Positions 62,064-64,000 of a DNA stretch of 64,000 nt are shown here, piece by piece. This DNA comes from Thermoplasmata archaeon. GTDB taxonomy: Archaea > Thermoplasmatota > Thermoplasmata > RBG-16-68-12. The stretch lies in contig DASWDU010000022.1 of assembly GCA_036395115.1 (NCBI GenBank), forward strand, positions 30,474 through 94,473, written 5' to 3'. The number at the start of each line of letters is the position of its first letter. Position 1 is the stretch's first letter. The notes beneath the pieces were generated by a model that saw nothing but the letters and a program-made list of their open reading frames with translations, made no database searches and had not been told where the DNA came from. The translations under genes and the position numbers were made by a program.

Positions 62064-62744
62064 GTGCCAAGGATCCTGACGAAGGATTTGATCAAAGTCT
62101 ATCGAACGGGGAAAGCGGAAGTGATCGCATTGCGCGGCCTCGACATGCACGTCGATGACGGCGAATTCGTTGCGGTTCGAGGGCCTTCGGGGGGCGGCAA
62201 GACGACCTTCTTGAATATCCTGGGCGGGATCGACCGCCCGACCGCGGGTCGAATCGAGGTGAACGGATCCAACCTCGTCAACTTCAGCGAGGGAGAACTC
62301 GTTCGGTATCGATTGCGACAGACGGGCTTTGTCTTCCAGTTCTTCAACCTCGTTCCGACGCTGACCGCCGAGGAGAACATCGAGCTGCCGATGCGCCTCG
62401 CCTCCAAAGACGGCGTGGCCCGGAAGGCTCGGACGAAGGAACTCCTGGATCTCGTCGGCCTCGCCCGCCGTGCGCGCCATCGGCCGGACGAGCTGAGCGG
62501 CGGTGAGCAACAGAGGATCGCCATTGCGGTCGCCCTGTCGAACAATCCGCCCTTGCTCCTCGCGGACGAGCCCACGGGAGAGCTCGACACGAAGACTGGC
62601 CAGGAAGTCCTCAATCTGTTCCAGCGACTGAACCACGATCTCAAGAAGACCATCGTCGTTGTTACCCACGACGCTCGGGTTGCGGACATCGCCAATCGCG
62701 TCCTCGACATCCGAGACGGCAAGATTGTCGAGACCGCGGCTTAG
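62064..62744 (+). CDS. ABC ATPase of the FtsX-type transporter (LolD/MacB-like)
   Basis: 226 residues from a GTG, 2 bp after the permease stop. Walker A VRGPSGGGKTTFLNILGGID, then TGFVFQFFNLVPTLTAEENI, signature LSGGEQQRIAIAVALSNNPP, Walker B LLLADEPTGELDT and VVVTHDARV. The FVFQFFNL-PTLTA motif is specific to the LolD/MacB/FtsE group. It drives the large permease; the substrate may be a lipoprotein, lipid or drug. Confidence 0.93.
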   Translation: MPRILTKDLIKVYRTGKAEVIALRGLDMHVDDGEFVAVRGPSGGGKTTFLNILGGIDRPTAGRIEVNGSNLVNFSEGELVRYRLRQTGFVFQFFNLVPTLTAEENIELPMRLASKDGVARKARTKELLDLVGLARRARHRPDELSGGEQQRIAIAVALSNNPPLLLADEPTGELDTKTGQEVLNLFQRLNHDLKKTIVVVTHDARVADIANRVLDIRDGKIVETAA

Positions 62745-62799
62745 GAGCTCACGCGGCGCATCGCCCGCAGGGAGACTCAACCGTGTCTCTGGTCCAACG

Positions 62800-63363
62800 T
62801 CATCGCGGTCTACGCCTTCGTTCCAGCCGGTTTCGTTTGCGTGCGAGTCTCATCTGCATCATGTCGAGCAATCTAGCCTTCCTGGGATGCCAGGAGCCGA
62901 CTCGCCTGATGAAGGCTGGAATCGAGGACCGACGCACGAAGAAACGCCAGTAATCTGGATCGGCCCGCCGACTCGGATTATGGATCCTCCCGCAATCGAT
63001 CCCAATCCAGAGAGGCATCAACCACAAGGCCGTCAGGTCTGCCTTGTTCTTTTGCGCGAAGTAGAGGTACGGCCGTTCGTCGGCGATGGCAGGGATTCCA
63101 CCTTCAGCGTCGAAGTAGCCTCGGATGTAGTCGATTATCTCTTTGCGGGTCCTGACGACACACGAGTCGAGGAAGGAGCGAGCGAATTCGACCACGAACA
63201 ATTCACGGGTCTGTCCTTCTCGATAAATCCATGCGTTGCCACCAAGGGAAATGATGAGCCGCTGAACGGACCAGATGTACCCCTTCTCGCGTTGGGAGAT
63301 TCTCAGAGTACGGCGTCGAATAGTGCCGTCGTGCATGGCGCCGAGAAGGTAGGCTTTGCTCAT
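62800..63363 (-). CDS. LAGLIDADG homing endonuclease, encoded downstream of the 16S gene
   Basis: 187 residues from the ATG at 63363. Two LAGLIDADG motifs: AYLLGAMHDG (residues 4-13, Asp12) and DYIRGYFDAEG (78-88, Asp85), so it is a monomeric double-motif enzyme. Between and after them are the expected saddle strands and helices (LRISQREKGYIWSVQRLIIS, YLYFAQKNKADLTALWLMPL, SSIPAFIRRVGSWHPRKARL). It ends in a very basic tail. A TATA-like box 26-28 bp upstream of the ATG suggests its own leaderless transcript. It lies 172 bp beyond the 16S 3' end, outside the intron. It probably cuts an intron-less 16S or related target. Confidence 0.88.
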   Translation of the reverse strand: MSKAYLLGAMHDGTIRRRTLRISQREKGYIWSVQRLIISLGGNAWIYREGQTRELFVVEFARSFLDSCVVRTRKEIIDYIRGYFDAEGGIPAIADERPYLYFAQKNKADLTALWLMPLWIGIDCGRIHNPSRRADPDYWRFFVRRSSIPAFIRRVGSWHPRKARLLDMMQMRLARKRNRLERRRRPR

Positions 63364-63385
63364 CTCGAATCGAGGAGAGGTTCGA

Positions 63386-63395
63386 TAGATTATGC
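63386..63395 (-). promoter_or_regulatory. TATA-like box of the homing endonuclease gene
   Basis: Minus strand GCATAATCTA, centred about 27 bp upstream of the ATG at 63363. It supports independent expression of the endonuclease and fixes the start codon. Confidence 0.45.
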
Positions 63396-63445
63396 CTAGC
63401 TCCCAGGAGGTGCCTGAAAGTGAACAGAGCGTGCGCTCACTACGG

Positions 63446-63459
63446 CTCCAAAAAAGGAG
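63446..63459 (-). terminator. T-run terminator candidate after 16S
   Basis: CTCC, six T and GGAG on the minus strand, about 75-90 nt past the 16S 3' end. A T-run of this kind is the usual archaeal intrinsic stop signal. It would separate the rRNA transcript from the endonuclease gene. Confidence 0.4.
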
Positions 63460-63534
63460 TGGATTAGACGCTCGCGATCGGGAAGCAGAGGCCCTTTCTA
63501 CCTTGCCAAGACCTCCTCGCCTGATGGCGTTCTT

Positions 63535-64000
63535 AGGAGGTGATCCATCTGCAGGTTCCCCTACAGATACCTTGTTCACGTTCTCCCCATGTCGCCATGG
63601 GGCGTGGACTGTATCATCATCCTGTCGCTGACAGGAGCCCGGCGTGCAGTCTCTGAGGGTTCCGACCTCTTGCGAGATCGGCCTTCCCTGCGGATTGTCC
63701 GCACCTCGAGATTGTGACCGCGGTCGCGGTACTCGAGGATCCACGGAGTTCCCCGCATATAGCCAGGTTTGTTCCGTCGCCTTGCGGCGTCGGAGTCGCA
63801 ACACAGTTTACGACTTAGCCCTCCTTGCTGAACCTAGGTTCTAGCGCCGCAAAAACGGAACCATCACCCAGGCTCAACTCGGGTGGCTTGACGGGCGGTG
63901 TGTGCAAGGAGCAGGGGCATATTCACCGCGTGATGTTGACACGCGATTACTACGGAATCCATCTTCGTGAGGGCGGGTTACAGCCCTCAGTCCGAACTAC
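63535..64000 (-). rRNA. 16S rRNA, 3' end with an intron (5' part outside window)
   Basis: The 3' terminus GGATCACCTCCT (anti-Shine-Dalgarno) is at 63535-63546. The helix 45 region, GTAGGGGAACCTGCAGATGG, lies upstream, and the universal TGYACACACCGCCCGTCA site of 1391-1406 is at 63890-63907. Between AAGTCGT (63810-63816) and AACAAGG (63576 downward) a 233-nt group I intron intervenes. Exons are thus 63810-64000 and 63535-63576. The sequence of the 3' domain is archaeal. No 23S gene follows. Confidence 0.96.
63577..63809 (-). ncRNA. Group I self-splicing intron in 16S rRNA
   Basis: 233 nt inserted after U1498 (E. coli numbering). P1: exon AGUCGU pairs with intron GCGACU (63799-63794), ending in the required U-G pair. 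P10: UGUU with exon AACA. P2: CGCC-GCAA-GGCG. P3: CCUGGC/GCCGGG. P4: UGCGG/CCGCA. P6: CCGAUCUC-GCAA-GAGGUCGG. P7: GACUG/CAGUC. P8: CCUGUC/GACAGG. P9: CCCCAUG-GCGA-CAUGGGG. The conserved core strings ACAAUCCGCAG, UCAGAGACUGCACG and GAUACAGUCC are present, and the last base is G (omega-G). No protein is encoded inside. Bulge-helix-bulge splicing is not needed to explain it. Confidence 0.95.

What the first reader, a model, noticed from the sequence alone, without database searches (positions are those of the whole stretch)
63577..63809. Compact group I intron in archaeal 16S rRNA, after U1498
Archaeal rRNA introns are nearly always the bulge-helix-bulge type; group I introns in archaea are rare and were recognised only recently through covariance searches. 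Here the whole catalytic fold (P1 to P10), the U-G splice pair and the terminal G can be drawn by hand in 233 nt. The insertion point lies between the decoding helix h44 and h45, at the subunit interface, where unspliced RNA would be non-functional.
Basis: partly seen in the sequence, partly recalled or inferred. Interest (0 to 1): 0.93.

Follow-up and report, generated by a model that had tools for sequence, protein, structure and literature searches.

The report
Archaeal intron with outboard homing gene
An archaeal 16S ribosomal RNA gene carries a 233-base intron that is predicted to cut itself out, and a DNA-cutting-enzyme gene whose relatives elsewhere lie inside insertions at this same site sits here just beyond the ribosomal RNA gene, from where it likely still helps the intron spread.

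Summary
Minus strand 63577-63809 is a complete group I intron after U1498 of an archaeal 16S gene (RF00028 66.0 bits, cut-off 50). Guide, U.G pair and terminal G are present in 15 of 15 aligned introns of the order, core helices covary, and a strict bulge-helix-bulge fits 0 of 8. The kind is known: PMC6125680 lists archaeal group I introns at SSU/1498, LSU/1923 and LSU/1931; this genome has one at each.

In all 19 named relatives that one genome scan returned, the gene lies inside an S1498 insertion. In the window's order 3 of 4 copies lie in the 16S trailer beside a gene-less intron; the fourth is cut by its contig end. Near relative G009 has the intron and lacks a ~650-bp segment with the gene. 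The protein keeps both motif aspartates and has a confident I-DmoI-like model. Reading: a split mobile intron, whose enzyme likely cuts empty S1498 sites so that repair copies both. Splicing and cutting are untested.

The parts
63810..64000 (-). 16S rRNA gene, 3' part of exon 1, ending at U1498; runs off the window, whose end is a contig end
   Evidence: RF01959 match; exact 141-base overlap with contig C30, which carries the 5' part
63577..63809 (-). group I intron, 233 nt, no gene inside
   Evidence: RF00028 66.0 bits; junctions; covariation
63794..63799 (-). internal guide GCGACU, pairs with exon AGUCGU (P1) with the U.G pair at the 5' splice site
63647..63651 (-). P7, 5' strand (pairs with 63607-63611 in the pseudoknot core)
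   Evidence: 4 constant pairs, fifth pair occurs as GC, UA and AU
63620..63636 (-). P8, closed by a 3-nt loop; in four intron-borne relatives that were printed the endonuclease gene sits here
63607..63611 (-). P7, 3' strand
63535..63576 (-). 16S exon 2, AACAAGG to the 3' end GGATCACCTCCT
   Evidence: RF01959 was not extended over the intron, so this is by sequence
63450..63455 (-). run of six T in the 16S trailer, likely terminator; a T-run at this place is seen in the printed trailers of the genus
   Evidence: sequences printed; function inferred
62758..63411 (.). about 650 bp present here and absent in near relative G009; holds the endonuclease gene
   Evidence: BLASTN borders; alignment, which sets the left border some 35 bp differently; host flank 95.4% identical over 3231 bp
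62800..63363 (-). LAGLIDADG homing-endonuclease gene, 187 codons, outside the intron, starts 171 nt after the 16S end
   Evidence: PF14528 E 2e-8; 61-protein alignment with D12 and D85 invariant; model pLDDT 95.5; I-DmoI best fold match
62064..62744 (+). gene of an ABC-transporter ATPase, convergent with the 16S gene; marks the far side of the insertion
   Evidence: open frame, named by eye; same gene follows the 16S trailer in G009

Best explanation
The window holds a group I intron at 16S position 1498 that is predicted to splice itself out, and just beyond the 16S gene an uninterrupted LAGLIDADG gene of a family found inside S1498 insertions, whose enzyme likely cuts intronless S1498 sites so that repair copies the intron and the nearby gene. 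Shown: the intron's structure and place, the gene's place outside it, and the gene's kinship to genes inside S1498 insertions. Inferred: self-splicing, from the conserved catalytic fold and from the lack of another 16S copy in the assembly. Inferred: cutting at S1498, because all 19 named relatives that the scan returned sit at that site. Inferred: joint transfer, because the gene begins 214 bp and ends 774 bp from the insertion point, a distance that flank co-conversion can span (recalled). The direction of the change, from P8 to the trailer or the reverse, is not settled.
For: Intron: RF00028 66.0 bits, full length; 93.7% of 667 cells paired and 19 pairs with changes on both sides against a shuffled mean of 8.0, 0 of 500 as high; 15 of 15 guides fit their own exon best, with U.G and terminal G. 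Gene: 19 of 19 named loci of one scan have it inside the S1498 insertion, exon 2 following 33-83 nt after the stop codon; 3 of the 4 copies in the window's order lie in the 16S trailer beside a gene-less intron of 233-249 nt, the fourth is cut at a contig start but shares the following sequence with G021. G009, 95.4% identical over 3231 bp of flank, has the intron (5' end off its contig) and not the gene. D12 and D85 invariant in 61 proteins, model pLDDT 95.5, best solved match I-DmoI. pN/pS 0.31-0.50 in ten comparisons. Introns of G000 and G009 differ more than their flanks (82.8% against 95.4%).
Against: No cleavage or splicing data. The target site is inferred from kinship alone. 7 of the 10 S1498-intron genomes seen in the order have no such gene anywhere in their assemblies, so the intron persists without it. 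The gene lies beyond a likely terminator, and no promoter was tested. Only 3 of the 19 named S1498 insertions reach the RF00028 cut-off at that place; for the others the intron type rests on the exon position and the guide GCGA(C) seen in the 17 with a visible 5' exon. The evidence for exchange of introns between species rests largely on the P5 extension: without it the tree is unresolved (p-AU 0.35), and the pair G018/G016 is not more diverged than its flank (Fisher p 0.07 in all; 99.3% identical without P5). pS is near or above saturation.
Confidence: 0.65

Rival explanations
1. The intron is a working group I intron, but the gene next to the 16S is a passenger or relic with no part in the intron's spread.
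For: 7 of 10 S1498-intron genomes in the order lack the gene; it lies beyond a likely terminator; one near relative lacks it.
Against: The frame is open, the motif aspartates are invariant in 61 proteins, pN/pS is 0.31-0.50, and the same place beside the same intron recurs in G021 and in G031, which is in another family.
Confidence: 0.2
2. The gene homes on its own: the enzyme cuts gene-less 16S trailers rather than S1498 and spreads independently of the intron.
For: In G031 an imperfect repeat of about 87 bp of the trailer flanks the gene (0 of 500 shuffles), and in G000 the gene forms a discrete insertion in the trailer.
Against: 19 of 19 named relatives sit at S1498, not in trailers; trailers differ widely between G031 and the window's genus (sequences), whereas S1498 is conserved; no such repeat in G000 or G021.
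Confidence: 0.12
3. The insert is an archaeal bulge-helix-bulge intron, cut by the tRNA splicing endonuclease.
For: This is the usual type of archaeal rRNA intron (PMC6125680).
Against: A strict motif with 4 of 4 central pairs forms in 0 of 8 S1498 introns at any placement that gives the right exon (best 3 of 4, without outer helix). Relaxed forms were not tested. The group I match and covariation are not explained by it.
Confidence: 0.02
4. Misassembly placed the gene or the intron next to the 16S gene.
For: The 16S gene breaks at a contig end with a 141-base overlap, a sign of a branching assembly.
Against: Intron, gene and ABC gene lie on one 94-kb contig; intron and gene occur in the same order in G021 and G031; the flank matches G009.
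Confidence: 0.02

Closest known systems
Archaeal group I introns at SSU/1498 (IB4.8, IB4.19, IB4.26), LSU/1923 and LSU/1931, Nawrocki, Jones and Eddy 2018 (PMC6125680)
   Same: Same three insertion sites, same type of ribozyme, archaeal hosts
   Different: Their SSU/1498 hosts are Nanohaloarchaeota and Micrarchaeota; here most likely Thermoplasmata. They looked for endonuclease genes inside introns only. Subtype IB4 was not tested here
CPR 16S insertions at position 1498 with LAGLIDADG_2 or _3 genes (PMC11270868, passages)
   Same: Same site and same endonuclease domain family, PF14528 in 16S insertions
   Different: There the gene is inside the insertion, and the survey counted only frames overlapping the insertion by at least 80%; here it is outside, after the 16S end
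Collaborative (trans) homing in phages, as reviewed in PMC3984707 (passages)
   Same: A free-standing endonuclease gene next to an intron without a gene, with the intron site as proposed target
   Different: Phage protein genes there, a cellular rRNA gene here; cleavage at the intron site is shown there and only inferred here; a LAGLIDADG enzyme here
I-DmoI (PDB 2vs7)
   Same: Closest solved fold: E 1.7e-7, TM 0.62-0.65, one chain of similar length
   Different: About 20% sequence identity; no solved relative by sequence search; I-DmoI comes from a 23S intron (recalled)

Membership tests
Group I intron | Conserved core P3-P9 with P3/P7 pseudoknot | tested here: met
   RF00028 66.0 bits full length; covariation, P7 fifth pair GC/UA/AU
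Group I intron | Guide pairs with the 5' exon, U.G at the splice site, terminal G | tested here: met
   15 of 15 introns, own exon best in each
Group I intron | Splices itself with guanosine and magnesium | not testable with these tools
   needs an in vitro transcript
Group I subtype IB4 | Best match to the IB4 covariance model | not tested
   no subtype models at hand; only the shared sites point to it
Bulge-helix-bulge intron | Two 3-nt bulges around a 4-bp helix at the junctions | tested here: not met
   0 of 8 S1498 introns, strict form
LAGLIDADG homing endonuclease | Domain with two motifs, each with the acidic residue, and the LAGLIDADG fold | tested here: met
   PF14528, D12 and D85 invariant, I-DmoI-like model
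LAGLIDADG homing endonuclease | Cuts its target DNA | not testable with these tools
   needs purified protein
Collaborative homing pair | Intron without a gene, endonuclease gene outside it | tested here: met
   G000, G021 and G031
Collaborative homing pair | Endonuclease target coincides with the intron site, and the intron moves with its help | tested here: inconclusive
   target inferred from 19 of 19 relatives; intron exchange suggested but unresolved without P5

The most novel reading that the evidence does not exclude
A split mobile intron in a cellular ribosomal RNA gene: the ribozyme stays minimal inside 16S, while its cognate S1498 endonuclease lives in the 16S trailer and drives both by cutting empty sites, with co-conversion carrying the pair. 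That is collaborative homing in an archaeon, in an enzyme family whose other members ride inside S1498 insertions.
Probability: 0.5. Interest if true: 0.7.

Novelty: new variant of a known kind. Interest (0 to 1): 0.5.

Why it matters
The intron itself adds a host, most likely Thermoplasmata, to a known site. The outboard gene matters more. Collaborative homing, proposed as a route by which introns and endonucleases join, is described for phages (PMC3984707); here one enzyme family has members inside the insertion (CPR bacteria, DPANN archaea) and beside the intron (this order). That makes the joining or parting of ribozyme and endonuclease testable by comparing close relatives such as G000 and G009. 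It also means that surveys which look for endonuclease genes only inside rRNA introns would miss such genes.

Tried and rejected
Bulge-helix-bulge splicing: rejected in its strict form. Intron or exon-2 remnants beside the outboard gene, which would show a tandem duplication of the intron: none beyond shuffles in G000 or G031 (the best, G000 intron against the stretch after the gene, was reached by 55 of 500 shuffles). A trailer repeat around the gene in G000 or G021: not found. One common origin of the outboard genes: neither shown nor rejected (the quick tree needs two changes for the window and G021 copies; held together with P0001 and P0002 they score higher than the free search, p-AU 0.68; G031 was not in that tree). 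More outboard genes in wider groups: class search, 5 of 400 genomes hit, four of them G000, G020, G021 and G031, the fifth a weak 48-residue match in an 821-codon frame; phylum search, 4 of 389 hit, G000 and three weak matches in frames over 1,100 codons (G020, G021 and G031 are not among its matches, and I did not check whether they were drawn). Viral contigs: no relative. A solved structure by sequence: none. Papers reporting an endonuclease gene just after an archaeal 16S gene: none in the listings (open-licence PMC only; most listed papers were not opened).

Rows dropped before counts: from the gene tree, the partial G020 protein and P0061-P0120; from alignment A2, the partial introns of G009, G016, G018 (23S), G019 and G023. 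The 47 pairs counted leave out P1, P2, the P5 extension, P10 and the extra 3' helices of the 23S introns. 10 of 22 family genomes could not be typed at S1498.

Full report
OBSERVATION. On the minus strand the window reads the 3' part of a 16S gene from 64000 down to 63535. cmscan finds RF01959 and a full-length RF00028 match at 63585-63819, 66.0 bits, E 2.3e-15. The intron is 63577-63809, 233 nt. The same genome (G000, 2.4 Mb, 98.45% complete) has two more RF00028 hits over cut-off in its 23S gene, with an 8-nt exon between the two introns, at places that correspond to LSU/1923 and LSU/1931 (the E. coli numbers come from recalled helix 69 sequence). The 16S gene is broken between contigs C22 and C30, which share 141 identical end bases; the own-genome search found no other copy. 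The named hits to a window thiolase are mostly labelled Thermoplasmata or Thermoplasmatota, some Methanobacteriota or Euryarchaeota; I take the host to be most likely Thermoplasmata.

IS IT A GROUP I INTRON. I aligned 15 complete introns from this order (8 at S1498, 3 at L1923, 4 at L1931) and counted a core structure drawn from the window copy. 93.7% of 667 cells pair; 19 of 47 pairs show changes on both sides, against a mean of 8.0 in 500 shuffles with none as high; a weaker measure, further pair types, is 31 against 26.7 (13 of 500 as high); sliding the partners gives 30.0-44.7% pairing. P7, part of the pseudoknot, keeps four constant pairs, and its fifth pair occurs as GC, UA and AU. Not all helices fit: the two stretches of P8 pair in 70.4% and 66.7% of cells, since P8 differs in length and its alignment is loose, and one P5 pair fails in 12 of 15. 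In 15 of 15 introns the guide pairs best with its own site's exon (5-7 bp, against 3-4 bp with the exons of the other sites), the first pair is U.G and the last base is G. P10 is 3-4 bp at S1498 and 0-3 bp at the 23S sites. A strict bulge-helix-bulge cannot be drawn at the junctions of any of the 8 S1498 introns.

DISTRIBUTION. RF00028 at E 0.001 or better: 12 of 22 genomes in the family (10 over cut-off), 15 of 37 in the order (12 over cut-off). S1498 introns: complete in G000, G018, G014, G021, G006, G007, G002 and G031, partial in G009 and G016. Empty S1498 sites: G005, G012 and G019, 3 of 22 family genomes. The other 10 family genomes could not be typed at this site.

THE OUTBOARD GENE. 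Starting 171 nt after the 16S end, on the same strand, is an ATG-started frame of 187 codons (62800-63363) with a LAGLIDADG_3 domain (PF14528, E 2e-8). One scan of genome contigs, with peptides of this protein as bait, matched 47 stretches, of which 19 encode a relative (43-56% identity), mostly from CPR bacteria, with two Micrarchaeota, another DPANN archaeon and two bacteria of unnamed phylum. In 19 of 19 the 16S exon-2 sequence AACAAGG follows 33-83 nt after the stop codon (for L036, whose 16S end is altered, read from the printed letters), so the gene lies inside the S1498 insertion. The 5' exon is visible in 17; in L023 the contig starts too late, and in L029 the only match is internal. 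In those 17 the guide GCGA(C) follows the 5' exon (by eye). RF00028 reaches its cut-off at that place in only 3 of 19 (L031, L035, L036). The four examples printed have the gene between the two strands of P8. The window intron's P8 is closed by a 3-nt loop. Several unplaced metagenome proteins nearer to the window's (P0003-P0007, P0022, P0039) carry N-terminal extensions that read as translated intron core, so those genes too appear to sit inside introns (by eye).

In the window's order the gene occurs in 4 of 37 genomes: G000, G021, G031 and G020. In G000, G021 and G031 it lies in the 16S trailer, 171, 155 and 209 nt after the 16S end, beside S1498 introns of 233, 249 and 240 nt without a gene. 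In G020 the contig starts inside the gene; from the end of the gene onward it is 80.5% identical to G021 over 1632 bp. None of the 8 complete S1498 introns of the order, 228-249 nt long, has room for the gene. Of 10 genomes with an S1498 intron, complete or partial, 3 have the gene.

HOW IT GOT THERE. Against G009, 95.4% identical over 3231 bp downstream, G000 has an extra 650 bp or so holding the gene, between the T-run of the trailer and the convergent ABC gene. G031 has an imperfect direct repeat of about 87 bp of its trailer on both sides of the gene (0 of 500 shuffles); G000 and G021 do not. No intron or exon-2 remnant was found beside the gene in G000 or G031. Whether the outboard genes moved once or more often is open.

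IS THE ENZYME ALIVE. Across 61 aligned proteins D12 and D85 are invariant. The AlphaFold2 model has mean pLDDT 95.5 and pTM 0.90; the best solved match is I-DmoI (2vs7, E 1.7e-7, TM 0.62-0.65). pN/pS among three outboard and two intron-borne copies is 0.31-0.50 in ten comparisons, with pS 0.75-1.03, near or above saturation, so this is only a rough sign of constraint.

SIGNS OF MOVEMENT. The introns of G000 and G009 are 82.8% identical where their flanks are 95.4% (Fisher p 3.3e-10), and 89.0% without the P5 extension (p 0.0011). G009's intron groups with those of G007 and G016 (support 98/99), whose alignable host sequence is only 69-72% identical to G009's. AU tests reject G000+G009 narrowly (p 0.049) and G018+G016 more firmly (p 0.008), but without the P5 extension G000+G009 is not rejected (p 0.35) and the tree is unresolved. 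The introns of G018 and G016 are 90.5% identical against 94.0% in the flank (p 0.07), and 99.3% without P5, so that pair may show only an exchange of the P5 domain. I take all this as moderate support for exchange between species.

MECHANISM. Shown: a complete group I fold at S1498 in the only 16S gene found in the assembly; a conserved endonuclease gene, of a family that sits in S1498 insertions, outside the intron. Inferred: the intron splices itself; the enzyme recognises the joined S1498 sequence and is blocked by the intron; a cut empty allele is repaired from the donor, and because the gene begins 214 bp and ends 774 bp from the insertion point, repair can copy intron and gene together. 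The gene lies beyond a likely terminator, so its expression is open.

WHAT IS KNOWN. Nawrocki, Jones and Eddy 2018 (PMC6125680; parts 1-3 of 4 of the text read) report 39 archaeal group I introns, three of them at SSU/1498, and name 1498 as the one position not observed before; they translated the introns to look for endonuclease genes. PMC11270868 (passages only) discusses position 1498 in CPR bacteria and LAGLIDADG_3 frames found only in 16S insertions; it counted frames overlapping the insertion by at least 80%. PMC3984707 (passages only) describes collaborative homing in phages. My searches for an endonuclease gene after an archaeal 16S gene found no report, within open-licence PMC.

VERDICT. 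With its kindred endonuclease gene outside it, the arrangement is a new variant.

Noticed in passing
L004 6009-6274 and 6283-6538 (-); L017 1556-1806 and 1815-2078 (+): Twin group I introns at LSU/1931 and LSU/1923, separated by an 8-nt exon, in G000 and in G003; 69-85% identical in sequence to most S1498 and 23S introns of the family, so one intron lineage seems to occupy three sites.
   Followed up: partly
L050 1319-1404 and 2304-2388: In G031 the 16S trailer with its T-run is repeated imperfectly on both sides of the endonuclease gene, like a scar of the insertion.
   Followed up: partly
window 62800-63804 (-): The gene's frame stays open upstream through the trailer, exon 2 and most of the intron (334 codons), in the frame in which P0003 and others read the intron core; in G021 the frame closes in the trailer, so this may be chance.
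   Followed up: partly
L022 3245-3317, L028 1950-2039, L033 1103-1179: Group II intron D1-D4 matches (RF01998) shortly before the S1498 insertion in three of the CPR or bacterial loci.
   Followed up: no
L029 7261-7520, L032 7519-7774: Further group I introns in the 23S genes of two loci that carry the S1498 endonuclease gene.
   Followed up: no
window 64000; G000 contigs C22 and C30: The 16S gene is split at a contig end with an exact 141-base overlap, as at a branch in the assembly graph; strains with differing 16S regions may be mixed.
   Followed up: partly
G000 C22/C30 and C45: 16S and 23S genes lie on different contigs, and no 23S follows the 16S in the window: the rRNA genes look unlinked.
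   Followed up: no
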